DNA from: Paramacrobiotus metropolitanus
Taxonomy: Eukaryota > Tardigrada > Eutardigrada > Parachela > Macrobiotidae
Length of the DNA stretch: 64,000 nucleotides
NCBI RefSeq assembly: GCF_019649055.1
Contig: NW_026570224.1
Span: forward strand, 2,356,001-2,420,000
Direction of reading: 5' to 3'
Part shown: positions 23,501 to 50,156 of the stretch, in pieces
Position numbering within the stretch: position 1 is the first letter of the stretch
Layout: the number at the start of each line of letters is the position of its first letter
Notes under the pieces: generated by a model
Seen by the model: the letters and a program-made list of their open reading frames with translations, nothing else
The model's database searches: none
What the model was told of the DNA's origin: nothing
Translations under genes and position numbers: made by a program

Positions 23501-24120
23501 CAGTAAGCCACTGTAAATCAACGTAAATGCAACGTAAAAGGCTGTTAATTCACCGTTAAGTCCCTGAAAATCCATGTTTGGCAATGTGCACATAAAGTAA
23601 ATCAACGTAAATGTAATGTAAAAGGCTGTTAATTCACCGTTAAGTCCCTGAAAATCCATGTTTGGCAATGTGCACATAACGTAAGTCAAAGTAAATGCAA
23701 TGTAAAAGGCTGTTAATTCACCGTTAAGTCCCTGAAAATCCATGTTTGGCAATGTGCACATAACGTAAGTCAAAGTAAATGCAATGTAAAAGGCTGTTAA
23801 TTCACCGTTAAGTCCCTGAAAATCCATGTTTGGCAATGTGCACATAACGTAAATCAACGTAAATGTAATGTAAAAGGCTGTTAACTCTCTGTTAAGTCCC
23901 TGAAAATCCATGTTCGGCACTGTGCACGTAACGTAAATCAACGTAAATGTAATGTAAAATTGCTGTTAACTCTCTGTTAAGTCCCTGAAAATCCATGTTC
24001 GGCACTGTGCACATAACGTAAACCAACGAAAATGTAATGTAAAATTGCTGTTAACTCTCTCTTAAGTCCCTGAAAATCCATATCCGACACTGTACACATA
24101 AAGTAAAATAAAAAGATTTA
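23501..24120 (-). repeat. 84-bp tandem repeat array, short (about 7 copies)
   Basis: Tandem copies with an 84-bp period; the word CCATGTTTGGCAATGTGCAC starts at 23572 and 23656 and recurs near 23740. On the minus strand each unit reads as 28 residues (VMCTLPNMDFQGLNGELTAF plus FYIAFTLTY), and because 84 is a multiple of three a single frame stays open over several units. Copies decay toward 24120. The array starts at CAGTAAGCCACTGTAAATCA (23501), which also ends, as its reverse complement, the long array near 50141-50156. Open frames are expected from the period alone and are not evidence of a protein. It looks like the minisatellite part of a dispersed element. Confidence 0.9.
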
Positions 24121-24731
24121 ACGTAAATACCATGTAAATCAACGAAAATCAACAGAAACACCGTGTTTGGAAACTTTAATCAACGTAAGCAAATTAAATC
24201 AACTTTAATGTAACGTAAAGGTGATGAACCAATGTTAAATTCTGTCAACACAGCCATGTCTGTGTCCGGCAAAAAATTCATTAGAAATCACCATGATTGC
24301 ACGCAGAATTGATAACAACTATTTGTTATGCCGCATCACCTTTATGGTGTCTGCGTAAACCAATATCAAGCAGCGGAAGTAATCATAAATGTGGCCTAAA
24401 AGCGTCGGTTACCATAAAGTACATTCGGCTATACAATCAACCGTTGTTGTTTGCAGAAGTAGCGATCAGAAGGTTCTGCGCAGTTTTCCGACCGCGGCGT
24501 TTGTGTTGTGCTGCTTTGTTGGAGGATCCTGGAAATAAAATAAAATAGGAAAATATTGTTGCTGCATAGTAAAATTTCCGAAATTTACGTCGTCGTAAAA
24601 TCATTACAATTTAAAAGAAGTCAGTTTCCCCAAGACCTTTTTAAATGCTATGTCATAAAATTTATGCAGTAAATAAAGCTGTGCGTTATATGGATTTCCG
24701 AATCTAGAATCAGTAGTGTGCTGCCAATATC
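24121..24731. other. Degenerate flank of the 84-bp array and 3' region of the JmjC gene
   Basis: The first ~120 bp hold scattered ACGTAAAT/CAACGTAA words that look like worn copies of the array. The rest is presumably the 3' untranslated region of the minus-strand JmjC gene. Confidence 0.4.
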
Positions 24732-27700
24732 CTAACCTATGCGATGGAAGGCGTTTTGATGATATTTCAGGGATTGTGGAGTGGTAAACACAGGCTTTTC
24801 GAAACAATCGCTGCACACGTATCGCATTTTGTGTATGCCGCGTTGATGTAGTAGCAAAGCCGCTCTTGACTGGAAAACTTTGTTGCAAGAATGAGTAGTG
24901 CAGACGTGAAGGTGAAGCAAATCGCTAGTTTGGTCTGGGCGGCCTATGGAGACGGTCTTTCTTTTTTTCTGTCTTGTTTGGTTTTCAGGTTTGACAGAAA
25001 CGTGGGACAAGAAACCACGGAACACATCATCATATATTAGTTCCACTGAGAAGTTGACTGACGGCAAATCACGTATTCGGCATAGCGTTTCTTGAAGAAA
25101 AACCCCGGGATGCATTTTTAAAAACTTTGTAGTTGGTAGTTTCCATGACGTGCATTTTTTCCCAACTTTTGGAGGAAAACGTATGGAGTTTATGTATCTT
25201 ATATCAGCTACGGTTGTTGCTAAAAGACGGTCTCGCAGGAGCTGGCTCCACTGATGCAAGGCTGCCGTAGTTTCGTCCCTTTTCATCTTTCGGCACTTGA
25301 ATAGACAAAACAAATACATTAAAACCGTTATGAGAATAAAGTACACGCTTACCCGGTTTCTTAGTGCCAAAGAAGCGTTTGTAACAGCTAACCAGTGTTC
25401 GTCAACAAAGTTGCGCGCCTGTGATGCAGAGCCTCCCAGATTGTACACGCTATGTAGAATTCCCGGACCCAGGTACACTACTGTATTTGGGTGTTGGATG
25501 AAAAAATGTGGTTGGATTTTGAACTTGGCGAACAGAGCTCGAGTGCAGGAAAAATTCTTGAAGCGATACTCGTGTCCACAAGCGGTGGAGCCTACAAAGG
25601 TTATAAAAAATTTGGGAAAATTAGCAGTGAAATGCTACATACCATCTTTGGAGGCAATATTCAGCGAATCCAAGTAGGCATAAAGGAGCACCATGTTACG
25701 GGTCTGAAAACCTGGTACAACGATCCATATTTTCCAACCCGGTCCTAATGAAGTTAAAGGATGTAAAAAATAATTCTGCTCATTGAAATTTATTATGCGT
25801 TTTAAAAATTAGTGGGAAACGGTACCAAGACGCTAGTGAATAAGGTTGGAAGCGCAGAAACAGGGGAAAGTTTTTTAGACAGTGGTTGTCTATCCAAATG
25901 CAGCGGGGAAAGGCAATATGTGTTGTGGGTAAAATCCCCGAGCAAGATAGCTTATGAAGAAGTGCTTTAAATTTCATTTTTAATACCCAGTATGTAGTTA
26001 CATGTTATCCAGAATCAGATCTATATTGCCACGAATGGGATACATCAGAGCCGGCAAACCAGAAACGAATGACGAAAATCAATATTATTTCTGAAAGCCC
26101 GTAGTCGAAAACCCGGCCAGATAGAATTCATGTCTTTCTAAACCTATCCCGCTTCGAACGCCAAAGCGGAAGAGTTTGACTATCTTCACCAACTAAATTA
26201 TTAAAATAATAATTATCGTCGTGGTATGTTTTATAGCCAGGCAGTGTTGCCAGGTAAATCAACTAAAATACAATTAAAATATGAAAGTATTTTCCACTAA
26301 TTAAAATATCAGAATGAACTTATTAGCAGACCGTTATTATGGTAAGAACCTCTTCATATCTAACGCTGTCATCGAGGACATTCATTTCTAAAAAAGTGCC
26401 GGCCGAGCAGCTATCGCTACACCATCCTACTGCGATTGTGTGATTGTCTGTTCAATCAGTGATAGACAGGACTACCGTCACTGTTCAGTGCACAAACCCG
26501 TTAGTTCAGCGAGTGACCGAAATATCACTATATCTGGGTTAAAATAGCCAACTAAGACAGTGAGTGACCGAACTACCACTATGTAAAGCTATGTGAGCGG
26601 TTGACCGAGCTGTCATTACTATCCGATACACAAAGCCCGGTGGGTGAGCGGGTAAGCGAGCTACCACTGCTGTCCGGCGCAGAAACCCCGTTAGGTAAAC
26701 TAGTGACCTAGCTACCACTACTGTCAGTGCACAGAACCCGATAGGTGAGCGGCTGACCGAGCTGTCACTAATGTTCAGTGTACAGAGCCCATTAGGGAAC
26801 GAGTGACTGAACTACCACTGCCGTCCGTGCAAATAGCTGACCGAGCTTCCACTACTGACCGGTGTAGAGAGCCCGGTAGGTGAGCGGGTGACCGCGGTGT
26901 CATTAATACGGGAGAGAAAGTCCGTTATGTGAGCGGCCGACCGAGCTACACCTATTGTCCCTGCACAAAGTCCGTTAGGTGAGCGGGTGACCAGGCTGTC
27001 ACTACTGACCAGTGCAGAGAGCCCGGTAGGTAAGCAGGTGACCGCGCTGTCACTACTGACCGGTGGAGAGAGCCCGGTAGGTTAGTGGGTGACCGCGATG
27101 TACTAAAACGGAAGAGAAAGTCCGTTAGGTGAGCGGGCGACCGAGCTACAACTAATGTCCATGCACAAAGCCCGGTAGGTGAGCGGCTGACCGAGCTGCC
27201 AATGCTGTCCGGCGCAGAAACCCGCGCGGTGAATGAGTGACTGAACTACCACTGCTATCCGGCGCAGAGAGCCCGTTCGGTGAACGAGCGACCGAGCTAC
27301 CACTACTGTCCGGTTCACAGAGCCCGATATGTGATGCGAGTGACTGAGTTTTCACTGCTGTCCAGCGCAGAAAGTCCGTTAGGTGAGCGGGTGACCGAGC
27401 TGTCACTACTGACCGGTGCAGAGCCCGGTAGGTGGGCGGGTGACCGCGATGTCACTAATGTTCAGTGTACAAAGCCCATTAGGAGATACGAGTGACCGAG
27501 ATTTAACTCCTGTCCGGCGCAGAAGCCCGTTCGGTGAACGAGTGACCGACCTGCCACTGCTGCCCAACGCAGAAACCCGTTCGGTGAACGTTTGACTGTT
27601 TGACTGAGCTATCACTACTGTCCGGTGCACAGAGCCCGTTAGGTGATACGGGTGAGTCGGGGTGACTGAGTTTTCTCTAGTGCATGGCGTACAAAACCGG

Positions 27701-30700
27701 GGAGGTAAGCAAGTAATCGAGGTACCACTACTGACCGGACGTACACTACCGGGCACACACCACTTTCCAGTGAAAAGAGCCAGTGAAGTGACGAGTCACC
27801 AAAATACCCGTAGTGATCCAGTGCACAGTCAGTGGTTTGAATTTCTATTTCGGCTTTCTTTTTGGGTAGGAAATATCGTACAAATTATCTGTATGTACAG
27901 CCAAAGGGAATGCTTTCAAGGTTGAGAAAACCATGAACTGATGTTCATATAAAATTCGTGTTTGCCCTATCGCATGTACCGATCATGTTTCGACGAAATA
28001 TAGATGTTATTCTAATATATATTTATTCAACTTCAAATACATGTAAAATGGCCATGGTCCAAAGAAACGCGGAGGCGAAGCCGAGGCTGCTTCTTGTACT
28101 TAATAATGTTACATAGTGTGTACAAAAATTATATAACACAAACGTACCGAAATTAACAGAAATGCTGCAGAACAGTTCGTCCTCAACGTGTTCTGCAGCA
28201 GTACTGTTGGTTGGAGCAATCAATAACCAAGGCAATGATAATCCCTCCCCTTCTCCCATGAAATTACTGAAAACAGCCTCAAATGCGGTATGGCAGTAGT
28301 TGATATTTGGTACGTCCTCCAGGATGCAGCTGTCTTCAAAAACTGTGGGCGTTAACGAGTAGGCTAGAGCTTGAGGGTAGATGACGCTTTTGCCGGAAAT
28401 CGATTCGACATAATTCCAAATTTCTGCGGAATCATCGGCAATTTTATTCATCCATTCGAGATCTTCAGCTCTAAAAAAACAGTCAAAACAGAGCTGCTAA
28501 ATATGTGGTTATTATGAAATATGGTCAAGATGAATGCCAAATGGCTAAGGTTTACTGTAATGGAAAAGTAGTGCCAATTGAGAGCAAGCGTTTTTCACCG
28601 GAATTATTATTACCGACTCAGGTACACGACTTTAGCATCCCCACATTTACGTTATGGGGTGGTCAACGTTAACAATGACCGCTCAAAATTTAAAGATATC
28701 AATCACTTCTGGTCTTTTATCATACGGTCGACAGCAAACTTTAGTATGCGGTTATTAAGTTTTTGACATTTTCTTTCTGCATTTAGGCCGGCTTTCAGTT
28801 CAGCTGGAGAACGAATGCTTGTAACGGTAAATAGTCTATTTAAATTTCTTACGTAGCAGCAAAATAGCAGCATTGTAATTTAAATACTTAAGCTTATGCC
28901 AGACTTTTATTTTCACCATAGCGCGCTCAAATGTAAAACCTATAATAATACAATTCCCTTATAAATACATTTTAATAAACCCTATAAATGTAGTTGTAAA
29001 CAATTATTTTTTGCAGTGAATTATTCTTGACTTATTTTTTATGCGCATTTTGCGCGGGGTCACCTACTTTAATTTTACGAATTGGCTATGCGCTTCGACA
29101 ATCGAGGCGAAAGTAAATCGGCTGTGCGCCCCGCACACCGAGCGCAAAGTTAATTGGCTAAAGAGCCTGAAATCTTCAAAATTTACGTGAACGCATTTAA
29201 TTTTTTCAAGAGATGGGTATTTTTTTAAATTTGAATTGTAGGTGGAAATTCTACCGCTTGGGCATTGACAATATACTATACGTAAGGTGTGAGGAAAGTA
29301 GTTGCCGGTGCGACGCCAAATAAATTTTGTTGTACACAACGTCGTGGCCACTTGGTTTACTCCAATCAACATGGCTTTGGTAGCTGTTTACAAGAGTTAG
29401 TTTTTTAAATTAATTCATCATGATAAGATTTGTGGCTGAATTTATAATAAAAAAAAATTGTGATTTCCGGTCGGTGTATGCTGGGCTGCGCTAGCTTACA
29501 TGTGCCCAAAACCGATCACAGTCAGCCATATATAGGTCTGGCTGCTTCGATCACAACGTCGTTTTATTGTTTTGCTCCTATTACGGATGAAGAAAACAAT
29601 GTGATACAATCAAAAAAATGTTTGTTACTATTTTAGCTATAACGGAAGCACTCAGATGTCGTCAATTGCTATGTATCCACTGTCAATGATGAGGCTTGGC
29701 TGCTTACCTAGCGTGCAACGGCTGAAATATATCAAGGGTGCGGCTTTGATGACAGTGCCTGTTCAGGCAACCTGTTAATCTCCTACGCCAATGCCCAAGC
29801 GGTGGATTTTCCACCAGCTGTTTTGAAAATGCACAGTTTTTTATACAAGAGCTGTAGAATTTCGACGGATACTGAAATTGTTAGATACTCACATAAAGTT
29901 ATCACTGATTTAATTTCAAATTTCTGCCATGACTGCCAATTTACATACACTTCGTAGAACTTCACGTTATTTTTTGAATGTTTTGTGAGCGATGTGGCTC
30001 TGTTATGGTGTGTTTTACCAAAAAACGAAAATTCACTGGGCAAAGAGTTATCTTTGCTTTATCTAATGCATGTGTTGTTCCGGGAATGACGATAGGTCTA
30101 GCGTTTTAAAAATTGCGATTTTTACTGGTGGTTTTCCATCTAGAAAACGCTGCCGGGTTAACTTATAAATCTAACGCGAGGTCTATTTTCCACAGCTGCA
30201 CGGTTCTGGTGCGAACGCAAGTTGGAAATAGAGAGTGCGAAGCAACGAACGAGAAATATAAAAAATAAGACGCAGGCAAGAAAAGAATAAGAAATAAGAA
30301 TAAGAAATACGAAATACGAAAACGAAATGCGGGAAAGAAATACGAAAAAGAAATAAAGATAAGAAATACGAAAGCGAAATGCGGGAAAGAAATAAGAAAA
30401 AGAAATGAGAATAAGAAGTACGAAACCGAAATGCGGGAAAGAAATACGAAAAAGAAATAAGAATAAGAAATGAGAGTACCAAATAAGAAAACACAAGAAA
30501 ACAAAAGATCTAAGAATAAGAAATAAGAATAAGAAATGAGAGTACGAAATAAGAAAACGTAAGAAAACAAAAGATATAAGAATAAGAAATAAGAATAAGA
30601 AACGAGAGTACGAAATAAGAAAACATAAGAAAACATAAGAAAACATAAGAAAACATAAGAAAACATAAGAACTAAGTATACTAAAAAGATGACAATTCCT

Positions 30701-31293
30701 CGATTAAGGCGCATGGACTGATAATTAAAACATCAATTTTTTGAATTCTGTTAAATGCGTATGTGTGGAAAACATTGCAATTTTTCAATCAAGCAAAATA
30801 AAATAAAAAAAGAATAAAAAAAACAAAATAGAATAAAATAAAATCAAATAAAATAGAAAAAACATTGACTGATAGGAAAATAAGTACGCACGATTACAAT
30901 CAATAAAAGAATCCCGACTTACGAGACGTGTAGATTTTGGGCTGCCAGGGAAGACACGTTTTTCCTTGTCGCTGCCGTGTCACCTTCTTCAATAATGGTC
31001 CATCCGCAATTATGAGAAAGGTTAATGCGCCGGTGCGCGTCCTGAGCACCCACTGGATAAGGGACATCACCCAAAGTCGAACCCTTTTTCATGGCATTCT
31101 TTAGCCCGCTGGTTTCAAAGTATGTGTTCCACTGTGATGGGACGGCATTAAAATCGATCAAGAATGCTCCAATTTTTTCGAGCCAGATTGCACAATCTTT
31201 CTCACGAGAAAGTGTGCCGAAACACTGTTTATAAGCATTGCAAAATTCTTCTCTGGTCAAGTTCAAACGGGGGCCTTCGATAAGCTCCGCCAT
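24732..31293 (-). CDS. JmjC-domain protein with C-terminal C2H2 zinc fingers
   Basis: Likely Fe(II)/2-oxoglutarate-dependent histone lysine demethylase or related nuclear oxygenase. Exons in transcript order 31293-30923, 28817-28707, 28470-28148, 25744-25643, 25591-25353 and 25295-24732 join in phase to about 569 residues. The JmjC core is split across three exons: LLIAPTNSTAAEHVEDELFC gives the H-x-E iron ligands in the KDM4-like context, then PGWKIWIVVPG, and then VVYLGPGILHSVYNLG with the distal His, followed by ARNFVDEHW. A lysine/arginine-rich tail leads to C2H2-like fingers (CNKVFQSRAALLLHQRGIH and CSDCFEKPVFTTPQSLKYHQ). The first exon (MAELIEGPRLNLTREEF) is cysteine-poor and of unknown fold. 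The small second exon rests on phase fit only. No JmjN domain is obvious, so I do not assign a KDM subfamily. Introns carry a ~1.85-kb repeat element and an A/G-rich array. Confidence 0.8.
26253..28105 (+). mobile_element. Dispersed element with internal minisatellite, copy 1 (in JmjC intron)
   Basis: Starts near AATCAACTAAAATACAATTA, with the shared left block CACTAATTAAAATATCAGAA, continues through about 1.4 kb of degenerate ~50-60-bp repeats (26440-27830; words such as GTGACCGAGCTACCACTACT and CAGAGCCCGTTAGGTGA), and ends with a unique tail: CCTATCGCATGTACCGATCA at about 27965 and AAGAAACGCGGAGGCGAAGC near 28065. Copy 2 at 32097-33510 has the same left and right flanks in the same orientation but fewer repeats. 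Unique-repeat-unique structure and dispersal mark it as a mobile element, reminiscent in layout of VNTR-containing composite retroposons. No protein domain or terminal inverted repeat was recognised. Confidence 0.75.
29064..29372 (-). other. Unassigned open frame within JmjC intron 1
   Basis: An uninterrupted frame of about 100 residues (motifs FIWRRTGNYFPHTLRIVYCQ and LTLRSVCGAHSRF) with evenly spread Cys, Trp and basic residues. It reads more like a protein fragment than random AT-rich sequence. It is not in phase with the host exons. I do not recognise it; a fragment of a transposon-encoded protein is possible. Confidence 0.25.
30240..30680. repeat. A/G-rich minisatellite in JmjC intron 1
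   Basis: Purine-rich low-complexity array built from AAGAAATAAGAATAAGAA, ACGAAATGCGGGAAAGAA and AAGAAAACATAAGAAAACAT units, with almost no pyrimidine blocks on the plus strand. Several ~60-bp higher-order repeats are visible (30300-30470). The minus strand reads as Phe/Leu/Ser-rich open frames, an artefact of composition. It sits about 240 bp 3' of exon 1 of the JmjC gene. Confidence 0.9.
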
Positions 31294-32096
31294 GGTTCGA
31301 ATTAATTGCAACTTTTTTCGCACAACGACTGTTTACTAATATGGACTGTTTCTGCTAAGAGACGATAGCCACTGCTTGCGCTTTTGGCAGATGAAGAAGT
31401 GAGCCGGGAAGTGCAATGTTGGACTTCTTTGTCTGAAACAGTCTCACTGTGCTTTGCGATTTAGATCCAGTCATCGCCTATCTAGCCAGAGCTGTTACAT
31501 TGAGAGCAATTATAGCGATATTAAAATGCAGAAGAGAGCTGTTTGTACGCCTTCCTATCTTTTCCATAGCATCTTACAAACGAACGACTGCGTAAGAGGC
31601 TAAAAGGCTATCAGTGCAGTTATAACAAGCCAGGCTCTGGAAACTGAATCCATACATCAGAACCATCAAAATCTTTCCGTGTGGCAGAGCGACATTGTGA
31701 AGAACTGCTGCCGCTTGTCGTAGGTGGGAATTTGCTGATCATTGTATTGTCTTATTTCCTATTTTGTCATTTGCGCGTGCTCTTTATTTTGGTTCTTACC
31801 AGGGCACCATTAAAATCTTAGTTTTTGCAGAAACAGTGCACCATCGCAATATAATTAAAAACCAATTTCATCTGCTGAAGGTAAAAAAAGCGTGGCCAAA
31901 CAAAATTAATCTGAGTAGATAGTATTGCATACAGTATACTAATACAATAGGCAGACTTTGTACATTTTGCAGTTCGCTTGTTTTCTTTCTTTCTTCCCTC
32001 AAACGCGTCATATATGGAATAAAATTACTTTTTAAACGTGCTACATTAGTAAATCTGCCAAAAACCAGATTTTTTCGTACTGTTTTTTCGTACTAA
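31294..32096. other. Upstream of JmjC gene, no gene recognised
   Basis: Contains the putative promoter of the minus-strand JmjC gene. No coding exon or RNA gene was supported. Confidence 0.4.
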
Positions 32097-33510
32097 CGTA
32101 AACCAACTAAAATACTATACTGAAGTATTTCCCACTAATTAAAATATCAGAATGAATTTAATTAGCAGACCGTTATTACGACAAAAACGACTAAGTACAT
32201 ATCTAACGTCTGTCTGTTCCATCAATGATAGACCAAACTACCGCCACTGTTCAGGGCACAAAGCGCTTTTTCAGAGAGTGACCGAAATACCACTATATTC
32301 TAGTTTGAATAGCCGCTAAGCCAGTGAGCGACCGAACTACCACTAGCTATGTGAGCGGTTGACCGAGCTGTCATTACTTTCCAGTGTACAAAGCCGTTAC
32401 GGAACGAGTGACCGAGCTGTCATTACTTTCCAGTGTACAAAGCCGTTACGGAACGAGTGACCGAGCTGTCATTATTGTACAGTGTACCTGAGATACCGAT
32501 CCACCAGTCTACCACTGTAGTCGAGTTGACAAAGCCAAAAGGAACGAATAAAAACGATGAAAACAGAAATTCGAATCGACCGCCCGTGGACAACAAGAAA
32601 CGCAGAGGCGAAGCCTAGGTGATCGAGGTACCACTACTATCCCGTGCAGAAAGCGCATAGGTAAACTGGTGCACAGAGCCCGGTAGGTGAGCGGGTGACC
32701 GAGCTACCACTGCTGTCTGGCGCAAAAAGTCCGTTAGGCGAGCAGGTGACCGAGCTAACACTGCTGTCCGACGCATAAACCCCGTTAAGTGAATTAGTGA
32801 CCGAGCTACCACTAGTGTCCGTGCAGAGAGCCCGGTAGGTGAGCGGGTGACCCAGCTAACATTGCTGTCCGGCGCAGAAAGCCCGTTCGGCGAACGAGGG
32901 ACTAAGCTACCACTACTGTCCGTGCATAGAACCTACGAGGTGAGCGGGTGACCGAGCTGTCACTACTGTCCAGTGGACAAAGTCTGTTAGGGAACGAGTG
33001 CGGAAGGTATCACTACTGTCCAGCGCAGAAACCCAGTTAGGTGAACTAGTGACCGAGCTATCACTACTGTCCGTCGAACAGAACCGTTAGGTAAGCAAGT
33101 AATCGAGTTACCACTAGTGACCGGACATACACTGCCGGACAGACACCACTTTCCAGTAAACAGAGCTAGAGAAGTGACGAGTCACCGAGCTAGTGATCCA
33201 GTGCACTATAACTGTTTCGAGTTTCATACTTTATAGACTGATATTTCGGGTTTCTTTTCGGGTAGGGAATTTTTATATCGTAAAAATTATCTATAAGTAC
33301 AGCCAGAGGGAATGCTTTCAAGGTTGAGAAAATCATTAAATGATTATCAATTTTTTCATATAAAATTCGTGTTTGCCCTATTGCATGTACCGATCATGTT
33401 TCGTTTCGTTTCATGTTATTCTAATAAATATTCATTCAAATTCAAATAAAATGGCCCTGGACCACAAGAAACGCGGAGGCAAAGCCGATGCTGTTTCTTG
33501 TACTAGAATA
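32097..33510 (+). mobile_element. Dispersed element with internal minisatellite, copy 2
   Basis: Second copy of the element at 26253-28105, same strand. Left flank (CACTAATTAAAATATCAGAA, TTAGCAGACCGTTATTA), ~1 kb of degenerate 50-60-bp repeats (32230-33190), and the unique right tail (ATGCTTTCAAGGTTGAGAAA, GCATGTACCGATCATGTTTC, AAGAAACGCGGAGGC) all align in order with copy 1. Near 32588 a copy of the right-end word (AAGAAACGCAGAGGCGAAGC) lies inside the repeat field, which suggests an internal duplication or a nested, truncated copy. An exact CATTACTTTCCAGTGTACAA duplication sits at 32371-32450. Confidence 0.75.
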
Positions 33511-33909: not shown

Positions 33910-35162
33910 CTACGGCGTTCCAGTCAGATCGTTGACCATTTCTTCCATCGAAAACCCGGTGCCATGACGCATTTCTTGCTGTCCAAAATGTGACGCCAAG
34001 AGTTCGTGACGGCGCAGACGATGGTTACCTTCGTCTAACGGCAAAAAACAGGGACGTTTTGCGGCCATTCGTGGTTCTCGCGGGGCAGATTCGCCAGTTT
34101 CCAACATTGGTTTGCTAACTGCACCGGCGTTAACTTGGATGCCGGACGCGGGATTTTCGTTCAACGGTGTCAATTGGGTAGAATATCCATGATTCACTTG
34201 GTGTGAGCGCTTAGTCAGCGTTCCGGCCGATGTTGCCGCCTCAGAGACATTTTCTTGCGCGACAGCTTCTTGGGAGGAACCTGGATTTCCCTCCTGGTTA
34301 TTCGGCATAACGTTTGTAATAGCAGGTGGTACAAACGGCGGTGCATTCACCGCTTCGCTCATGTTGAAACTATAAGCCGTGACACCGATGACGAGGAACG
34401 GTACCAATCGCCATCGGTTCTTAATCCTCACGTTGTTGGTCATCTCCGGTATGTTCGTCGCAAATTCATAAAATTTAAATTGCTACAAAAAGCACAGTCA
34501 TTAACAAAAATTCGATTTTTGTGTTACATTAATTTTTAAATACATAAATTGTAGAAACAACTTTTACCCCGATGAAAAAATCGTCCTTCGCAAGTGTTTT
34601 GAATGTCGGTGAACATTGACGATCCAGAAAATAGCTTCAGCTCTAAGTACTCGTAGCGACGTTTCAGCTTAGGAGGCTGAGGCGATAGATTGGATACCAC
34701 GTAATGCCCCCCGCCACATTTGACCTTGTAATCATCCGTCATCTATTAAAATATCAACCGTGTAAAACCAAAAACTTTCAGCCAATATTGAAAACAAATC
34801 TAACTACAAAAGCATACATTAATAGGATTGCCGGCCCTAACTAAGGCTGAAAGTAAAGCAGTCTTGGGTTTATGATATTTTAATACAATGCACATAAAAA
34901 GTATAGTGTAAACGCTTACCCATCGTATGTAGTCGACTATTTCTTTCTCGCTGTAGAGTGCAAAATGGCGGTTGATGTCCATTAGGAAACACTGGACGTG
35001 GATACTCTGCCCGAGAAGCAAAATATTTTCCATTGTCCTAACCAAGTGGCGGTGAATCAGGAAGCGTGAAGTGTTCACAGATTGAACGTTTCCAAAAAAA
35101 TGCGCACGTTCGAGTAGCAGCTGAATTAAATAACAGGATCGCGGTACGTTCGACAAAACCAA
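33910..35162 (-). CDS. Unrecognised multi-exon gene
   Basis: Three coding blocks on the minus strand: upstream block to 34920 (up from 35162), 34742-34568, and 34482-33910 ending at a stop. The first junction (TGG|GTAAGC to TAG|ATGACG) is in phase; the second looks one base out of phase with the visible sites, so either that boundary is wrong or the copy is damaged. The first block is rich in hydrophobic and His residues (FLIHRHLVRTMENILLLG, FLMDINRHFALYSEKEIVDY); the middle one has KRRYEYLELKLFSGSSMF; the last starts QFKFYEFATNIPEMTNNVR, passes a short hydrophobic stretch (LVPFLVIGVTAY) and becomes a disordered Asn/Glu/Pro-rich tail ending MEEMVNDLTGTP. I do not recognise the family. A 5' exon may lie above 35162. 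Confidence 0.4.
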
Positions 35163-38021: not shown

Positions 38022-38108
38022 TTTTTTCAACACGAAACGTACGACCACCGTGCAACAAAGGTCAAACAGAAAAAGGTCAACTGATTCGCTCTTGTCAAAA
38101 AATATCAT

Positions 38109-39679: not shown

Positions 39680-40516
39680 GAACTAACAAAAGATATAACA
39701 GCAGGAACGGAATGTACGGCTCTCAAATGCTGTACGGCTCTCACCAGTTCGTACTGTTGCACAAAATGGCTGTCCTTTTATGGGTTAAAAAATCTCATGT
39801 ACTTACATCGGCACCAGAAAAAATTATTGTACTACATATTATCAGAATCTATCGTATATCATATCAATCACAAAAATGCTTATAATAAAAAGGGTGCGAA
39901 AAGGGGAGTCCAGAATATAGGGGGGTTTTAGGGGTTGTCTGTAAGAGTACCCTTAAGTTATACGTGGAAAGAAACAGAATTTTGTCCACAAAATGTCTTG
40001 GACTTTCAAGTCGGGTTGCTAATTTGAATTTCAGGCGCTGTTGTTTGATATTTCACCTTCAACATTTTTTCACAAAAAAAATTTGCGATCTTTTTGTGTG
40101 TTATTGCATGAAGCAAATTGCACTCTTACTTGAGGTATTTAGATTGTTGAATTGTTTTGTTCTGTACGACAATTTCACATTCGCATTCGGTAATTGTGGA
40201 CATCATTTATTTTAAATTGATTTACACCACATTATTACCCGACATGGTTTCAATCCCAGAACAAAAAAAGAAAACCAGTAATATGTAAGTTAATAATATA
40301 TCAATGAATATCAGTGAATAAAAACATGTCAATCAGTATGAACGAACATGAGTCGAATGAAATGCAGGAAGAAAAAATCCACAGCAGACAAATTTTACGC
40401 AGATAAAATAAAAGTTAATTGCGTTTGCCAAAAGATGCCAAAACATTTTGAATTGGGCAAGTGCAAATATGACCGTAGTCAACAAACATGTTGCTACTCG
40501 CAGGTGACACGTAATT
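39680..40516. other. Intergenic, no gene recognised
   Basis: AT-rich DNA 3' of the PHD-finger gene. Nothing supported. Confidence 0.35.
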
Positions 40517-41438: not shown

Positions 41439-41696
41439 GCTCGCTGTAAATAAGTCACGTATTTCACAAGGTGACCAAGGTCGCCAGCAATAAACGCATT
41501 CTATTGCTATTTATTGACAACCGCTCTTTATTGCTATCATTTTTGAGTCTACATTAATACCTAGAACGTTATTAACAACAAAGCAGCTGCTGAAAGAACT
41601 ATGTAATCATAAACCCGTTCAAAGTTAGCGCTAAACCCTTATGCTAGCATCTTACCTACACTTACGTTAGAACAAAACACTGTTTATTTTGTTTAT

Positions 41697-43972
41697 TTAA
41701 AAAAATCTATCTCTTCCTAGAAATTTAATTATTTCTAGCATAATTAGGATTTGCTTTGGAAGGATTATATTCCGTAAGTAATTAGCGTTTGCCCCGTTAA
41801 TTTTACCCATCACTGCTCCCGGAAGTGAACTAGTTCTTGCCGATAAAAATTCTAGCTCTTCGTCCGTAAAATGTGATTTCAGGACACAAATGGCGCGTTG
41901 AACTTTGCCAGATATTCCCACGGGATGAGAGTTAACGGTGCCTGGTAATTTTTTCAAATCCGAAAAATCAAATGCACAGCTATCCGCGTGAACATTCATC
42001 AGTGGAGTAAAGTCTTGCTCCCTAAAGGCCACATACGGCAGACTGCTGGTAACCGCGAAGCATTTCTTTAACTAAAAAAGCAAACAATTGTGTCTAAAAC
42101 GAGTCTAGTCAAAGATAGTAATAAACACATTTAAAGGATATTAGTTGAGTTTATGCCGTTTTGTAATCCATACCTCATCAGGAGCTGCTCCCCGAATTTT
42201 GTGTATTACTTCACAAATCCTAGCTTGCAAGGCCCTATCCAAAATAGCCAGCGATGGCCCAATTGTGGTTTCGGCAGTGTATTCATAGTAATACTGCGCA
42301 ACAGGAAGTAGTTGTTGCATTACGAAACCTTCAATTTTAGTTGCCCACACATCCCATCCGCATTTTTTCACAAACTAAAGAAACAACATTAACAGCAACA
42401 AAATCTGTATTTTTGGTCATCAGTTAGTCCTACCATTTCTGTTGCTGCCACTAACATAGCATAACCGTCGACAATACGATTATGGCTGTCCGTCAGGATC
42501 GGCATTGCCGCTTTAATTGGATATCGAAGCTCATGCATGCGCTGCATGAGCTCTTCGATATCGTGGTTGGTCAGGTTTAAGATGGCCTCAAAGAACTGCG
42601 AAGCTGTTTCTCTCCCGTGTGCAATTTGGCGGAATTCTTCGCGCGTGGCACTTTTGAATTCCACAAGCATCGGTATCACTACTGCTCGGCTCAGTGATGC
42701 GAAGCTTAAAAAAGTATTGTACATTATGAAGCGCATATATCTAGATGCTCATGGTGGAACTCACTTTTTGCGAAGCATGGAAATGGTTTTTTCATTACAG
42801 GTGAACCAAATTGTTGTCCCAGGAGTCTGATTCGAGTTATGTTTTAGCACTGGTCGCGCTTCGTAGCACTCCATGAGTGCGGTTGCGACGAGGCTTTCGT
42901 CTTCAGCGTCATGAACGATTATTGGGAAGTGGTCTTCGGTGTAACGCTCCCGGAGCCTTGTCAACGTCATATCTTTGTAAATGCAGATTTGCTGAGCGTT
43001 TGCTCCGCAAAATGATGTCGAAACGTTGGCGTTTAAGCTTTTCCCTGTGTTTCGGGGCCCACACAAAAGGAGTGCTGGAACGTGACCAACGGTTTTCACA
43101 AGAAGCCGGTAATGCAAACTGATGATGGAGGTGTGGCCTACAACATCCGATTCGAATTTCAGTTAATCTCGAAACACCACTTCTTCAGTATCAAAGACCT
43201 ACCGCAGGTTAACAAGAAGTTCAAAAACACATCGGGCATGCCATCTCTTTCCAGCTTTTCTCGAACCACTTCAAGAAGATGGCACGGTTCTGTTCCGGAA
43301 TAGATTTGCAACGGGATGACATTAGTCAGCTTCGAATAATGCGACACCCAAACGTATTCTGATTGATCCGCGGAAATCCGTTCCACTTTTCCAGCATTTC
43401 GTTTGTAATGCAGATTAGGCCCAAAAATATAGGTTTCCCGTCATCTTGAAGGTTACGGTGTTCTGCCGGAGGCTTATCTGGAGTCAGCTTCCGTTGGGAG
43501 CAACGCCTTAAGTAGTAATCGTAGGCAAAATTAAAGTATACCAAGAATAACTTGGTGTGCTGATTAGTTACTTCAGCTGTATACTGTCACGAAAACTGAT
43601 CCACTGGATCCTAGAGTTATGACCATTTTAAACCACAACCTTTCTGCTAATTTAAGTTCATGATTCCGTAACTCCGATCGTGTAAATAATTCAATATTAA
43701 ATATATGTTTTTCCTGAACCAGCAAGCAATAAAACCGCATTTAATATTTCGGATTTCGATAAAAAATGAACACTAAACCTTATACCATTTAATTATGCTG
43801 ACCAAGCTTATTCTCTTACTTGTCGTATTGGGTTCGCTTCCAAACAATATATGAATTAAGCTTGTCCCCATTCAGCGATGGCGCGAGTAACGGCGGCATG
43901 CCGGGAGTGCTTTGGATGTCTGACAAAAAACGCTGAACACTTTTGAAGCCGGACGTTGTCAAGTAGCAAGAC
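41697..43972 (-). CDS. P-loop ATPase gene of unknown family
   Basis: Coding segments on one strand, with splice-like borders: 43972-43820, about 43550-43203, 43137-42765, 42704-42434, 42374-42174 and 42071-41697. The segment at 43137 carries a Walker A loop (LLLCGPRNTGKSLNANVS), a Walker B-like strand ending in acidic residues (HFPIIVHDAEDES) and a sensor-like strand ending in Asn (TTIWFTCNE), the order seen in SF3-type and related AAA helicases. The next segment (SLSRAVVIPMLVEF, RIVDGYAMLVAATEM) resembles the region after the ATPase core in such proteins. The last segment ends at a stop at 41697. I cannot name the family. It may be a host gene, or may derive from a DNA transposon or virus-like source; it lies head to head with the KDZ transposase at 44798. 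I treat the segments as one locus without claiming an exact protein. Confidence 0.5.
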
Positions 43973-44797
43973 CTAAACAAATTTTCATAACTCTGAATGC
44001 CTTCAAAAAGACGAAATATTTGCACAACTCAGATTTACCGTTCACAAAACTAGAAAGATCAAGCTAACGTAGCCAACCTCTGTCGTAAAATTTTTATTTG
44101 AACATGATTGCCTTTGTTTATCGCAACTTACCTCCCATTTTGAAGGTTGCAGGTTTTATTTCACACAACCAACCACTTTCTAGAGATTCCCTTTGCACAC
44201 ACCTTGAGTAATTCTCAAAGTAAACCCAAGAACAAAGGAAGTCTTTGAGTCATGCTTATCCTTCTCGCCGTAATATGTGCAATGATCTTTTCATACCAGT
44301 CAGTTGTTCCTTTAAAAAAACTTAGCGCCATTTTTTAAACAAATTGAAAGGTTAAGCAGTTAACGGCATCTTCAACTGAAACTCGAGCACAGTTAACCGC
44401 TCGCCTTTTCTAGATATGTAAAATGATGTATGCATCAAAAGCTTATAAGTCATGCGATGACCGAAGATATCATATTGCCGGTTGGTTTAATAATGCATAT
44501 GGAATGCTATCTTGCGTTCACAATTTTCCTGATTCGCTGTTCAGTACAAAATAAAGACGTACGTTGTGAGCTGCAGGCTTGCCTTAGTAACGCAGAAGCT
44601 ACGTTTTTTCGGCTACTAGAGCGCTATGTTTGAACATTTTGCAGTATATTCTGCAACATGCTTTTGCCCAGTAATGAGATTTGTTGAACGATGAAAATCC
44701 TTCTATAAAATCCGTTGAGCGGCAGTTTTAACTGCTTTCAGAAAGCGTTGTTTGTAACACTCCTGTGTAACTTTTTTCTCAATACTCCTAATTAATT
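43973..44797. other. Spacer between divergent ATPase gene and KDZ transposase
   Basis: About 800 bp, presumably containing both promoters. A short open frame at 44430-44633 has no recognisable domain. Confidence 0.4.
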
Positions 44798-47124
44798 ATG
44801 GCTTCTTTGCATTCACTAATACCTGCACTCAGAGATGTTCCGAAGGAGATGCCTGTTGAAGCAATCGCTTTTGTATGTAGTTCGGTTAATCATACTCAAT
44901 ATTATTTTGCATTGTTATTCTTTTCTTTAGATGCTGGCGAAAACTTTTAACGTAGATGAAAAATCTGCGTTGGCAGCTTTGAACGAAAAAAACTGCGATG
45001 TTACTACCATATTCTGCAACAAAGATTCTGCGCAGTTTGTGCTTTGCCCGCCCTTGTACCAATGCCTAAGCAGATGCGATCCTTTGAGTTTTAAAATAAC
45101 TCAGGGAACAAAGGTCAGTGCTTCTCAGGTACCTACGTACCTACGGTTTCTACGACAAACTTATTGAACACAAGTTTAATCAAATATGTTTTGGTACCTC
45201 AACATATACAAAACTGGTATATCAGACTGAATACCTGTAATGATATTATGTTGGTTTCTGATTCCATTAGGTTATATTGTACTCGATTGACGAACACCCG
45301 TCCGCATGCACCCATTTCATATTTTACTGTACAAAATGCGGCAACAGATACTCTTATAACACTTATTACGTGAAATCTTATGGAAATCGGTTTCTTTATC
45401 CGGAAGCTCGGCTTTTCCTACAAGTTACGGGAAAAGTGTTCTGGAACAGGAAACTTGTCGATCTCTTGATTAACTCCGTGTAAGATCTCCTCGCTCTGTT
45501 ATAATTATCAGGCTGTCAGGCTGCAAATTTTGGTTTTCTAGTCTGCATGGCCACGTAACTTTCGAATCCTTTGCCGAAATCTGCCGCACAACTTTTCGAT
45601 TCCCGTTCGGTATGAAATTGAACTGAAACATCTGAACTGGAAAACCGTCTTTACTTAAACGGTGTTATTTCAGCGTTCAAGAAAAAAATTGTGTCCAAGG
45701 CGTTTTTTGTGAATGAAACTGAACTTGACTTGCGCGAGCGGTGTTTGACTTTTGCTTTTCCTGACACTAAACTGGACATACTGGAGGTCAAACAGTTTCT
45801 TGATGGTATCCGACAAAAAGAGTTGTATCCACACAGCTGTTCGGCTACTGGAAAACGTCGTGGATGCCCGTTCCTGGTTGTGTTCGATGGCATTTGGAAG
45901 ATTGCGCACCGACACTGCGCGATGGTAATGAAGGTAATTTTTTTTTCAAAAAAAAGGAATGAGGAAATAAACTGACACGTTTAGCTCCTAAAGATGTCAT
46001 TTGTAGAACTCCATCAATATTGCCCATGTCAGGTTGCCTTCCGTTTGTCCAAATGAACCTAAATGGGGGCAACTGTATTGCGACGATCATGCTGATCTAG
46101 CAAAAAGCCATAACTTGCCAATAACTCGGAACGGCAAACTTTTGGAAATGGCTGGAGATAGCATTGTGCAGCTTGCTCTGGCTTGTAATCCTGATAATAA
46201 TCCACCTTTCGGAGAAATTTTCAATGAAACTGATTCACAGACGGCAATTGTGCAGAAAGAAGTGTTGAGTAATGAATTTTATAACGACTCTCCATTGCTA
46301 ACCGGCCCTCACAAAGGTTGCGGTAATGCCAAGGTCGCGCTGCCATGGTGCCGAAAAAATCACGGCGAACGAAAACTGGCGTACACTACAGTCGTGGGTA
46401 CTTAGTGTTCGTGCACGCTTGCGGTGCTGTTTCCAGTTTTTCGCCACTATACAAGTAAGTACAATTTTTCAAAACTTCATAGTTTGCCGACGGAGACTGC
46501 TAAGACAGTTCATAACTAACGTACATAAAGTAAACGCGATGGCATATTATTTTTCTAGGTCTGAATCTTTGAGCCAGGTGTTTGTTGCGGCCACAGAGTG
46601 GCTTTCAAAGTATGTCCTGAAACTTGAATCTGGTGACCGGGAAAAGCTGTTCCTATGCTATGATAACATGTAAGTATCGCACATCACCATTATTTTTACA
46701 ATAAACCCATTTGCAATAACAATAAAGCCATTTGCAGGTGCAACTTTGCCAGGCTCAAGGCCATGTCTGAACCTTTACCGGAACCGTTTCCTTGCGATTT
46801 GTGGAAAACGTCAACAAAATCATCGATAAGCTGCATATTCAAAATCACTGTCGGGAACAGTGTCGGTCAACTTTCAATCCAGATCAGTTCCTTACTCATC
46901 ATCCAACGTGCGATAAATTCAATACCATGGCGGCAGAACAGACGTTTGCTTGGTTAGGGAAATATAAGAAGCAAATGAATTCAATGTCCAAAGAAAATCA
47001 AGCTTTCTTCCTACATCGCCTCATTAAGCGCAAAAACGAGTACAACGAATCTTGCTTGAAAAATAATGTGACACCATTGTTTGCTGGTAGGCGTACTGAG
47101 CTTGCCCGTCTTGGCCTTGCCTAA
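44798..47124 (+). mobile_element. KDZ-type DNA transposase (intron-containing, degenerate copy)
   Basis: Exon-like blocks 44798-44872, 44931-45113, 45271-45479, 45542-45609, 45674-45933, 46007-46454, 46559-46669 and 46738-47124. Features of Kyakuja-Dileera-Zisupton transposases appear in order: a Cys-cluster region (FYCTKCGNRYSYNTYY, then FLQVTGKVFWNRKLVDLL), the first catalytic Asp (FLVVFDGIWKIAHRHCAMVM), a Cys/His knuckle (CPNEPKWGQLYCDDH), VFVHACGAVSSFSPLYKSES, the second Asp (LFLCYDNMCNF), KLHIQNHC, and the C-terminal Glu region (NTMAAEQTFAWLGKYKKQM). Most junctions join in phase, but the frame changes twice: near 46310-46345 and near 46803-46810 (an AAAA run). The copy is therefore probably inactive, or the sequence has small errors. 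No terminal inverted repeats were delimited. Introns in a transposase of this class are unusual enough to allow past domestication. Confidence 0.75.
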
Positions 47125-47560
47125 CTTGTTCAACCGCATTTCATTGCACGTAATTTAAATGGGGCGTTTGATCCTCCAAAGACCGCCACCGAATTTAAAC
47201 TGCAATGAAAATCTTATAAAAATCATTATTTCGAAAACTTTATCGCTATTTTGTTCTCTTATGTTTTTTTAATTTTTTATGTTTTCTTATGTTTTTCATG
47301 CTTTCATATGTTTTTTTGGTTTTCTTTGTCGATAATTACTTTTCCTCAATGTTACGCCGTTGTCGTGTTTTGCTGGGGTGTTGTGAATAAACTTGGCATG
47401 TGGAAACCATCGGAATTAGGATAAGACTTACAATAAAAATATCAGCAATTCGCCAGAAGGAAACCTAATATATAAATTATATAGAACCTTATCTTTTTTG
47501 CTAACTCAACCTACATAGAGTTGACATGCTTGAGGATGCAGAACTGTCATCCTGAACTTA
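47125..47560. other. Region between transposase and 84-bp array
   Basis: AT-rich with a T-rich low-complexity run near 47260-47320 (TTATGTTTTCTTATGTTTTT). May include the 3' end of the transposon. No inverted terminal repeat recognised. Confidence 0.4.
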
Positions 47561-50156
47561 CGTTGATTTCCGTTATGTGCACATTGCGGAACATGGATTT
47601 TCAGGGACTTAACAGAGAGTTAACAGCAATTTTACATTACATTTACGTTGAGTTACGTTATGTGCACAGTTTCGGACATGGATTTTCAGGGACTTAACGG
47701 TGGATTAACAGCCTTTTACGTTGCATTTACTTTGACTTACGTTATGTGCACAGTGCCGAACATGGATTTTCAGGGACTTAACAGAGAGTTAACAGCAATT
47801 TTACATTACATTTACGTTGATTTACGTTATGTGCACAGTTTCGGACATGGATTTTCAGGGACTTAACGGTGGATTAACAGCCTTTTACGTTGCATTTACT
47901 TTGACTTACGTTATGTGCACAGTGCCGAACATGGATTTTCAGGGACTTAACAGAGAGTTAACAGCAATTTTACATTGCATTTACTTTGACTTACGTTAGG
48001 TGCACAGTGCCGAACATGGATTTTCAGGGACTTAACAGCCTTTTACATTACATTTACGTTGATTTACGTTATGTGCACATTGCCAAACATGGATTTTCAG
48101 GGACTTAACGGTGGATTAACAGTCTTTATATTACATTTACGTTGATTTACTTTATGTGCACAGTGCCGAACATGGATTTTCAGGGACTTAACAGAGAGTT
48201 AACAGCCTTTACATTGCATTTACTTTGACTTACGTTATGTGCACAGTGCCGAACATGGATTTTCAGGACTTAACGGTGAATTAACAGCCTTTACATTACA
48301 TTTACGTTGATTTACGTTACGTGCACAGTGCCGAACATGGATTTCCAGGGACTTAACGGTGGATAAACAGCCTTTTATATTACATTTACGTTGATTTACT
48401 TTATGTGCACATTGCCAAACATGGATTTTCAGGGACTTAACAGAGAGTTAACAGCAACTTTACATTACATTTACGTTGATTTACGTTATGTGCACAGTTC
48501 CGGACATGGATTTTCAGGGACTTAACGGTGGATTAACAGCATTTTACGTTGCATTTACTTTGATTTACGTTATGTGCACAGTGCCGAACATGGATTTTCA
48601 GGACTTAACAGAGTTAACAGCAATTTTACGTTACATTTACTTTGACTTACGTTATGTGCACAGTTTCGGACATGGATTTTCAGGACTTAACGGTGGATTA
48701 ACAGCCTTTACGTTACATTTACTTTGACTTACGTTATGTGCACAGTGCCGAACATGGATTTTCAGGACTTAACAGAGAGTTAACAGCAATTTTACATTAC
48801 ATTTACGTTGATTTACGTTATGTGCACAGTTCCGGACATGGATTTTCAGGGACTTAACGGTGGATTAACAGCCTTTACGTTGCATTTACTTTGACTTACG
48901 TTATGTGCACAGTTCCGGACATGGATTTTCAGGACTAACGGTGAATTAACAGCCTTTACATTACATTTACGTTGATTTACGTTATGTGCATATTGCCGAA
49001 CATGGATTTTCAGGACTTAACAGAGAGTTAACAGCAATTTTACATTGCATTTACGTTGATTACGTTATGTGCACAGTTCCGGACATGGATTTTCAGGGAC
49101 TTAACGGTGGATTAACAGCCTTTTACGTTGCATTTACTTTGACTTACGTTATGTGCACAGTTCCGGACATGGATTTTCAGGACTAACGGTGAATTAACAG
49201 CCTTTTACATTACATTTACGTTGATTTACGTTTTGTGCATATTGCCAAACATGGATTTTCAGGGACTTAACGGTGAATTAACAGCCTTTTACATTGCATT
49301 TACTTTGACTTACGTTATGTGCACAGTGCCGAACATGGATTTTCAGGACTTAACGGTGAATTAACAGCCTTTTACATTACATTTACGTTGATTTACGTTA
49401 TGTGCACAGTTCCGGACATGGATTTTCAGGGACTTAACGGTGGATTAACAGCCTTTTACGTTGCATTTACTTTGACTTACGTTATGTGCACAGTTCCGGA
49501 CATGGATTTTCAGGACTAACGGTGAATTAACAGCCTTTTACATTACATTTACGTTGATTTACGTTATGTGCATATTGCCAAACATGGATTTTCAGGGACT
49601 TAACGGTGAATTAACAGCCTTTTACATTGCATTTACTTTGACTTACGTTATGTGCACAGTGCCGAACATGGATTTTCAGGGACTTAACGGTGGATTAACA
49701 GCCTTTTACGTTGCATTTACTTTGACTTACGTTATGTGCACAGTTCCGGACACGGATTTTCAGGACTAACGGTGAATTAACAGCCTTTACATTACATTTA
49801 CGTTGATTTACGTTATGTGCATATTGCCAAACATGGATTTTCAGGGACTTAACGGTGAATTAACAGCCTTTTACATTACATTTACGTTGATTTACGTTAT
49901 GTACAGTTCCGGACATGGATTTTCAGGGACTTAACGGTGGATTAACAGCCTTTACGTTGCATTTACTTTGACTTACGTTATGTGCACAGTTCCGGACATG
50001 GATTTTCAAGGACTTAACGGTGGATTAACAGCCTTTTACGTTGCATTTAATTTGACTTACGTTATGTGCACAGTTCCGGACATGGATTTTCAGGACTCAA
50101 CGGTGAATTAACAGCCTTTTACATTGCCTTTACGTTCAGTTACAGTGGCTTACTGT
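47560..50156 (+). repeat. 84-bp tandem repeat array, long (about 30 copies)
   Basis: About 2.6 kb of units with the core ACATGGATTTTCAGGGACTT, each unit also holding GTTATGTGCACAGT and a TTTACGTTGA/TTTACTTTGA block. Unit variants alternate (AACAGAGAGTTAACAGCAAT versus AACGGTGGATTAACAGCC), giving a two-unit higher-order pattern, and some units are 1-3 bases shorter (FQD variants with GGACTAACGG). It is the same family as the array at 23501-24120 but inverted. It ends TTACAGTGGCTTACTGTA (50140-50157), the reverse complement of the start of the other array. On the plus strand many units stay open in one frame (28 residues each), interrupted where unit length changes. Confidence 0.92.

What the first reader, a model, noticed from the sequence alone, without database searches (positions are those of the whole stretch)
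23501..50156. Inverted pair of 84-bp repeat arrays sharing one terminus
The short array (23501-24120) and the long array (47560-50156) carry the same 84-bp unit in opposite orientation and both end at the same sequence: CAGTAAGCCACTGTAA in one, its reverse complement in the other, itself partly palindromic (TACAGT...ACTGTA). A shared terminus means these are not plain local satellites: they look like two insertions of one element whose body is a minisatellite, or two ends of a rearranged segment. I know of no described element with this layout.
Basis: seen in the sequence. Interest (0 to 1): 0.7.

Follow-up and report, generated by a model that had tools for sequence, protein, structure and literature searches.

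The report
Giant jumping gene with minisatellite ends
The two mirrored repeat arrays are the two ends of a single 27-kilobase jumping gene in an animal-like genome, which carries a transposase gene, an ATPase gene and what looks like a histone-demethylase gene, and has a near-identical copy elsewhere in the same genome.

Summary
The arrays are real. They are neither two insertions nor a rearrangement, but the two ends of ONE transposon, window 23451-50205 (26,755 bp). A second copy on contig C50 is 99.5% identical over the 23.4-kb interior, with unrelated flanks, 24 instead of 31 right-hand units, and a 5-bp duplication; a paralogous uninterrupted site supports precise insertion there. Diverged relatives keep the plan (terminal motif plus minisatellite) with other repeat units; a 1.7-kb derivative is mostly inverted minisatellite. 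The element encodes a KDZ (Zisupton-type) transposase, assigned through relatives; a P-loop ATPase, divergent from it in all 20 of 29 places where both occur; and a KDM4-like JmjC-zinc-finger protein. Best reading: a giant, recently active KDZ cut-and-paste transposon of foldback form. That the arrays are repeated transposase-binding sites, and the JmjC protein an anti-silencing factor, is inferred. New variant of a known kind.

The parts
23443..23450 (.). left target-site duplication GTTTTGTC
   Evidence: identical 8 bp directly outside both ends
23451..23500 (+). left outer terminus (CACATAATGCACAATTTGTTT...), non-repetitive part of the inverted repeat
   Evidence: C4/C50 identity begins at 23451; matches the right end
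23501..24120 (+). left minisatellite arm, 7 units of 84 bp
24735..31332 (-). JmjC-C2H2 gene, exon candidates 30922-31332, 28026-28496 (HxE: EHVED), 25638-25808 (GPGWKIW), 24735-25634 (GPGILH and C2H2 fingers); splice sites not verified
   Evidence: JmjC piece 23.0 bits, just under the Pfam cut-off of 24
26602..27655 (+). internal 51-bp minisatellite (rows 26602-26831 and 26838-27655) between JmjC exon candidates
   Evidence: homologous repeats in the C14 derivative
32360..33073 (+). further internal minisatellites of the same kind, 32360-32487 (49-bp period) and 32677-33073 (51-bp period)
41700..44028 (-). P-loop ATPase gene, exon candidates 44028-43819, 43440-43162, 43162-42764 (GPRNTGKS), 42748-42392, 42374-42144, 42071-41700; splice sites not verified
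   Evidence: matches in the same order in C420; 64% aa identity of the P-loop exon
45271..47121 (+). KDZ-type transposase gene, exon candidates 45271-45480, 45474-45623, 45622-45972 (FDGIWKI), 46007-46402, 46302-46670 (CYDNM), 46771-47121 (DKLHIQNH, AEQTFAW); splice sites not verified
47558..50143 (-). right minisatellite arm, 31 units of 84 bp, inverted, with higher-order 166/249-bp periods
50144..50205 (-). right outer terminus (...CAAATCGTGCCCTATCTA)
50206..50213 (.). right target-site duplication GTTTTGTC

Best explanation
The finding is one autonomous-looking DNA transposon of 26,755 bp whose inverted ends consist of a ~50-bp terminal motif followed by a minisatellite arm. SHOWN by sequence: the element boundaries, target duplications, a second near-identical insertion, a paralogous uninterrupted site, related families with the same kind of end, and conserved genes. 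INFERRED: the element-encoded KDZ-type DDE transposase binds the terminal motif and the repeated subterminal units, pairs the two inverted ends, excises the element and inserts it with a staggered cut that gives an 8-bp (sometimes 5-bp) duplication; the P-loop ATPase helps the transposase; the JmjC protein, tethered by its zinc fingers, removes repressive histone methylation from the element. The repeats grow and shrink by unequal exchange or slippage, which would explain 31 against 24 units between copies; internal deletion leaves short foldback derivatives with minisatellite arms. My own odds: transposon with minisatellite ends 0.97; KDZ transposase is its mover 0.85; arrays are multiple protein-binding sites 0.5; JmjC acts against silencing 0.45.
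For: Second copy C50:399476-425676 with identity stopping at both ends and no match between 10-kb flanks; 8-bp duplications at 4 of the 6 insertions with both ends seen (C4, C14, C101, C108) and 5-bp at 2 of 6 (C25, C50); paralogous uninterrupted site for C50, gapless across the junction; interior 99.5% identical, 43 mismatches in 23.4 kb. Diverged subfamily with the same terminal motif and 10-bp and 73-bp arrays. Transposase exon finds 52 matches, and all 3 places that pass the Pfam KDZ cut-off in a separate search are among them; C-terminal exons of 2 of 6 relatives hit KDZ at E 3.4e-5 and 8.7e-4, below the bit cut-off. Of 29 merged P-loop places 20 have a KDZ match within 15 kb, 20 of 20 divergent (two of the 20 are C4 and C50); about 0.25 expected if places were spread evenly. 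Between the window and C420 dN is about 0.26 in stretches of two transposase exons and one ATPase exon, dS beyond what NG86 can compute. JmjC gene near the same end, in the same orientation, in C50, C108, C21 and C420, and deeper inside C14 and C25. Zisupton makes 8-bp duplications (PMC12730594 passages).
Against: The window's own transposase exons do not hit Pfam KDZ (up to E 1), nor do 4 of 6 relatives' C-terminal exons (up to E 5); the link is through relatives, and one of the three places over the cut-off, C515, has stops inside. Two of six insertions have 5-bp, not 8-bp, duplications. Nine of 29 P-loop places have no KDZ match within 15 kb. No expression, splice or binding data. The JmjC piece scores just under the Pfam cut-off in the window (23.0, cut-off 24) and just over it in C127 (24.6); the exon with the HxE pair has no Pfam hit in either. 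The JmjC gene is broken in frame in the C50 copy, and its matches in C108, C21, C420, C25 and C14 contain stops. The KDZ/ATPase pair is inverted in C420 relative to the window, and only one end of C420 is held. The middle part, about 31.4-41.7 kb, has no assigned genes. No empty allele of the C4 site exists in the assembly.
Confidence: 0.85

Rival explanations
1. Segmental duplication or inversion breakpoints: the arrays are two ends of a rearranged block.
For: Two copies of one long stretch exist in the genome.
Against: Identity stops abruptly at both ends, the 10-kb flanks do not match each other, an 8-bp duplication flanks C4, and a paralogous uninterrupted site exists for C50; four relatives at other loci show the same kind of ends with their own duplications.
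Confidence: 0.02
2. Composite: two short foldback elements bracketing about 22 kb of captured host DNA that now move together.
For: Short elements with similar terminal motifs exist (C14, C25, C101, C108), and foldback elements are known to mobilise DNA between them (passage in PMC6431247).
Against: No inner second terminus: in the window the terminal motif matches only the two outer ends, all else at E 0.26 or worse. JmjC, ATPase and KDZ genes recur together in a diverged relative, C420, that begins with such an end. C14 holds relics of the JmjC gene, the 51-bp repeat and the 84/73-bp unit, so it looks like a deletion derivative.
Confidence: 0.07
3. The KDZ gene is a passenger and the element is moved in trans by another transposase, for example Mutator-like, as proposed for several foldback elements.
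For: Foldback elements are mostly assigned to Mutator (passage in PMC4079207), and duplications of about 8 bp are not unique to KDZ (Tetris 8-9 bp).
Against: KDZ and ATPase are paired at 20 places and their exons are conserved at the protein level; no other transposase domain over a cut-off in the 28 of 214 ORFs scanned with Pfam.
Confidence: 0.08
4. An endogenous virus or Polinton-like element rather than a transposon.
For: Size, many genes, two ORF regions with signal-peptide- and membrane-like stretches near 33.9-34.5 and 37.4-38.1 kb (read by eye).
Against: No polymerase, integrase or capsid family over a cut-off among 28 of 214 ORFs scanned (one repeat-coded ORF gave a sub-cut-off match to a herpesvirus family, E 0.011, taken as chance); a scan of viral contigs with the ATPase exon found no relative; 8-bp rather than the 6-bp duplication of Polintons (recalled).
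Confidence: 0.03
5. The arrays have no function: neutral slippage products that survive because they lie in spacer DNA.
For: Unit number differs between copies (31/24); the interior also holds minisatellites, one between JmjC exon candidates; the repeat unit differs between subfamilies.
Against: Arrays sit next to the terminal motif, inverted, at both ends of the window element, and next to the motif in both subfamilies; the 84- and 73-bp units align at about 68-72% although the proteins of the two subfamilies differ at about a third of positions.
Confidence: 0.4

Closest known systems
Zisupton / KDZ (Kyakuja-Dileera-Zisupton) DNA transposons
   Same: KDZ transposase family through relatives' Pfam hits; multi-exon transposase; terminal inverted repeats; 8-bp duplications (PMC12730594 passages). 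Fungal KDZ elements carry a TET/JBP dioxygenase; this one carries a JmjC protein, also of the Fe/2-oxoglutarate dioxygenase class (class recalled).
   Different: 26.8 kb long, minisatellite ends, divergent P-loop ATPase partner, JmjC-C2H2 gene, some 5-bp duplications. In the held library no paper holds both JmjC and Zisupton. Zisupton-like elements of a nematode have inverted repeats but no duplications were detected there (PMC9297572 passages).
Galileo (Drosophila, P-element superfamily)
   Same: Long internally repetitive inverted ends; tandem repeats that vary in number in one subfamily; deletion derivatives; repeats proposed as secondary transposase-binding sites (PMC3573991 passages).
   Different: P-element transposase and 7-bp duplications; here KDZ and 8 (or 5) bp; Galileo is far shorter (recalled).
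Foldback elements (FB, Tetris, TFB1, Tm1)
   Same: Tandem-repeat arms in inverted orientation; 8-9-bp duplications in complete Tetris copies (PMC4079207 passages); copies without coding capacity.
   Different: Tetris lacks a transposase; most foldbacks are assigned to Mutator; here a full-length copy with genes is present and its transposase is KDZ-like.
Giant eukaryotic transposons (Polintons, Teratorn, Starships, Terminons)
   Same: Large, multi-gene mobile units.
   Different: Different movers (names recalled). The review PMC6431247 holds neither the word KDZ nor Zisupton (term search of its text).

Membership tests
KDZ (Kyakuja-Dileera-Zisupton) superfamily | transposase with KDZ domain (PF18758) | tested here: met
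   Met through relatives, not by the window's own exons: 3 of 3 genome places over the cut-off overlap hits of the window exon on the same strand; 2 of 6 relatives' C-terminal exons at E 3.4e-5 and 8.7e-4, below the bit cut-off; window exons none
KDZ (Kyakuja-Dileera-Zisupton) superfamily | 8-bp target duplication (as in Zisupton) | tested here: inconclusive
   met in 4 of 6 insertions including the window; 2 of 6 have only 5 bp
KDZ (Kyakuja-Dileera-Zisupton) superfamily | terminal inverted repeats | tested here: met
KDZ (Kyakuja-Dileera-Zisupton) superfamily | DDE catalytic residues in an RNase H fold | tested here: inconclusive
   conserved D and E candidates in alignment A1 and FDGIWKI in another exon; assignment recalled, no structure made
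Foldback-type elements (structural class) | long inverted ends built of tandem repeats | tested here: met
Foldback-type elements (structural class) | Mutator-like transposase (commonly assigned, not defining) | tested here: inconclusive
   no such Pfam hit in 28 of 214 ORFs; the rest were not scanned; KDZ instead
Galileo / P-element superfamily | P-element (THAP) transposase | tested here: inconclusive
   no such Pfam hit in 28 of 214 ORFs; the rest were not scanned
Polinton/Maverick | DNA polymerase B and retroviral-type integrase | tested here: inconclusive
   no hit in 28 of 214 ORFs scanned; the rest were not scanned
Segmental duplication | shared flanks without target duplication | tested here: not met
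JmjC histone demethylases (KDM4-like) | HxE...H iron-binding residues | tested here: inconclusive
   EHVED and GPGILH present in separate exon candidates, conserved with C127; splicing and activity not shown; KDM4A is the best PDB match of the C127 exon, E 0.0032

The most novel reading that the evidence does not exclude
Animals host a lineage of giant KDZ transposons that carry their own histone demethylase (JmjC-C2H2) to resist silencing, in parallel to the TET/JBP dioxygenases of fungal KDZ elements, and whose transposase works on expandable minisatellite arms, so that the same elements also seed new minisatellites in the host genome.
Probability: 0.35. Interest if true: 0.82.

Novelty: new variant of a known kind. 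Interest (0 to 1): 0.6.

Why it matters
For Tetris no transposase has been found, and foldback elements have mostly been assigned to Mutator, Galileo to P (passages). Here a full-length, apparently recently active element of foldback form is visible with its genes and short derivatives, and its transposase is KDZ-like. The JmjC gene would be a transposon-borne histone demethylase, the counterpart of the TET/JBP dioxygenases of fungal KDZ elements, which makes the question whether transposons carry anti-silencing enzymes testable in an animal.

Tried and rejected
Segmental duplication, two independent satellite insertions and rearrangement were rejected by boundaries, duplications and the paralogous uninterrupted site. 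A Tc1/mariner reading (TA next to CAGT...ACTG) was considered and dropped once the true ends were found 50 bp further out. The word TTACAGTAAGCCACTGTA as a genome-wide probe did not beat its control (9+5 against 7+5), nor did the degenerate motif taken as a whole (8+6 against 6+7), although its best-matching rows are true ends. PDB search with the transposase alignment gave nothing. Viral-contig scan with the ATPase exon gave no relative. No empty site for C4 in the assembly. I considered the C74:657642 motif as an end and dropped it: wrong orientation relative to the C74:653045 transposase exon. The host species was not identified; animal is inferred from a Cys-loop receptor membrane region. 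No structure prediction was run.
Full report
WHAT WAS CHECKED. The window is G000:C4:2356001-2420000 of a 169.8-Mb, 533-contig genome. Pfam finds a Cys-loop receptor membrane region, a biotin carboxylase and an ARMT1-like domain in the flanks, so the host is probably an animal (inference).

THE WHOLE UNIT IS ONE ELEMENT. A genome search with the short array found strong array matches at only one other locus, C50, in the opposite orientation. Alignment of the window with C50:380001-450000 gave one 26.2-kb block (window 23451-49562, 99.0%) and, through the right array, a block ending at 50206. Both copies run from CACATAATGC to ...GCCCTATCTA, and 10 kb of flank on each side of the two copies do not match each other. 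In the window the next 8 bp on both sides are GTTTTGTC, so the element is 23451-50205; base 50206 belongs to both duplications by chance. The outermost 70 bp of the two ends align, with a run of 18 identical bases at TACAGTAAGCCACTGTAA, and no third copy of the terminal motif is found in the window (next best E 0.26). The C50 copy (26,201 bp) has 7 left units like the window but 24 right units against 31. Nearest matches of the units suggest repeated triplets, that is, higher-order expansion. The interior differs by 43 mismatches and 63 gap bases in 23.4 kb, so the move was probably recent.

INSERTION SITES. C50 has GAATT on both sides, 5 bp. Its joined flanks match a continuous paralogous stretch at C50:440053-440482 at 73% with gaps elsewhere but none within about 40 bases around the junction, which supports precise insertion with 5 duplicated bases. 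The C4 joined flanks match only their own two halves, apart from 15 short (30-36 bp) repeat matches at one end. Four other insertions have both ends held: C14 CTACCCGA (8), C101 AAAAATCA (8), C108 AAAATATA (8), C25 TAGAC (5). So 4 of 6 have 8 bp and 2 of 6 have 5 bp; C21, C23, C150, C170 and C420 were left out because only one end is known. I cannot explain the two lengths.

RELATED FAMILIES. Three weak array matches (C108, C420, C21) proved to be a diverged subfamily: terminus CA(C/T)ATATGGCACAGATTGTTTAGGCGGAAAAACGGCAACG (the first bases of C420 are off its contig), a (ACCTAACGGA)n array, a second copy of the terminal motif, then an array of 73-bp units (found by Tandem Repeats Finder in C108 and C420; not in C21, where it is seen only by similarity) that align with the 84-bp unit at about 68-72%. 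Their other end type, GAGATATGGCACTGATTGTTTAGG, is found exactly at 6 places with no control hit. C101 (1,700 bp) is 62% tandem repeat by Tandem Repeats Finder and consists mostly of nested inverted minisatellites between perfect 8-bp duplications. C14 (6,156 bp) is 35% tandem repeat, with arms of 10-bp repeats about 77-84% alike when inverted, plus relics of the JmjC gene, of the 51-bp internal repeat and of an 84/73-bp unit, so it looks like a deletion derivative.

GENES. (1) Transposase: the exon 46771-47121 has 52 matches in the genome. A separate search with Pfam KDZ gave 3 places, all over the cut-off and all overlapping those matches; one, C515, has stops inside. C-terminal exons of 2 of 6 relatives hit KDZ at E 3.4e-5 and 8.7e-4, below the bit cut-off. 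The window's own exons do not. Seven aligned sequences keep D, HxxNH, AEQ-F-W and further columns. (2) P-loop ATPase: exon 42764-43162 with GPRNTGKS, 32 matches; Pfam gives only weak AAA similarity in C420 (E 0.04); an SF3-helicase-like motif order is my reading from memory. After merging fragments (52 to 49 and 32 to 29), 20 of 29 ATPase places have a transposase match within 15 kb and all 20 are divergent; 9 have none; two of the 20 are the C4 and C50 copies; about 0.25 such neighbours are expected for evenly spread places. (3) JmjC-C2H2: exon 24735-25634 gives JmjC at 23.0 bits (cut-off 24) and C2H2; the relative in C127 gives 24.6 bits and KDM4A as best PDB match, E 0.0032. The HxE pair and the distal H are conserved in separate exon candidates, though the HxE exon has no Pfam hit. 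The gene lies 1-2 kb inside the same end, pointing to it, in C108, C21 and C420, and further inside C14 and C25; all those matches contain stops in at least one piece and C50 has a frame break. Between the window and C420, NG86 dN is 0.262, 0.261 and 0.259 in stretches of 375, 306 and 138 bases (one ATPase exon, two transposase exons); dS could not be computed (returned -1, saturated) and the YN00 method failed. I take this as purifying selection. C420, of which only one end is held, has the JmjC gene in the same place, while the ATPase-KDZ pair is inverted there.

HOW IT PROBABLY WORKS. Cut-and-paste by the KDZ protein acting on the paired inverted ends (inferred from family, ends and duplications). 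The subterminal arrays are most simply read as multiplied binding sites for the transposase or an accessory factor, as proposed for Galileo (PMC3573991 passages); a neutral origin by slippage is not excluded. The ATPase may assist the transposase. The JmjC protein may counter chromatin silencing, in parallel to TET/JBP in fungal KDZ elements (PMC12730594 passages). None of these functions was tested.

COMPARISON AND NOVELTY. Zisupton makes 8-bp duplications (PMC12730594); Zisupton-like elements in a nematode have inverted repeats and many exons, and no duplication was detected there (PMC9297572 passages). Tandem-repeat arms are known from Galileo and Tetris. In the held library no paper holds both JmjC and Zisupton. 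The other listings seen (titles and abstract starts: 20 of 60 papers, 6 of 6, 20 of 21, 12 of 84, 9 of 9, 2 of 2, 12 of 25) showed no KDZ element with minisatellite arms or a JmjC gene that I could recognise. The library lacks most subscription papers; the first Zisupton paper and the KDZ paper were not read (recalled only). I therefore call it a new variant of a known kind.

LIMITS.

Noticed in passing
50693-51406: A 123-bp tandem array (5-6 copies, up to 95% matches) lies about 0.5 kb outside the right end of the element; between them, near 50294-50330, is a short repeat with dispersed copies.
   Followed up: no
30281-30671: Purine-rich minisatellite inside the element (several overlapping periods from 7 to 132 bp); similar short repeats are dispersed in the genome.
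   Followed up: no
33913-34482 and 37358-38123, minus strand: Two ORF regions with signal-peptide-like and transmembrane-like stretches (by eye) and no Pfam match; possibly membrane proteins of the element.
   Followed up: partly
C50 and C25 insertion sites: Target duplications of 5 bp instead of 8 bp, directly at both ends; the C50 case is supported by a paralogous uninterrupted site.
   Followed up: partly
L014:3785-4390 and L015:1-780: In the second subfamily the terminal motif occurs twice, once outside and once inside the 10-bp array, as if a new terminus plus array had been added outside an older end.
   Followed up: partly
L071:143-166 (C74:657642-657665): GGCACGATTTGTTTTAGAAAAAAC, a near match to the window's right terminus without a recognised partner.
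   Followed up: no
10049-10831: Reverse-transcriptase ORF (RVT_1, E 2.5e-19), probably a retrotransposon remnant, left of the element.
   Followed up: no
L057 (C74), minus-strand ORFs of up to 301 aa: A long array coding NYRDY/TTQTT-type repeats next to a KDZ exon in C74, another KDZ locus with a minisatellite.
   Followed up: no
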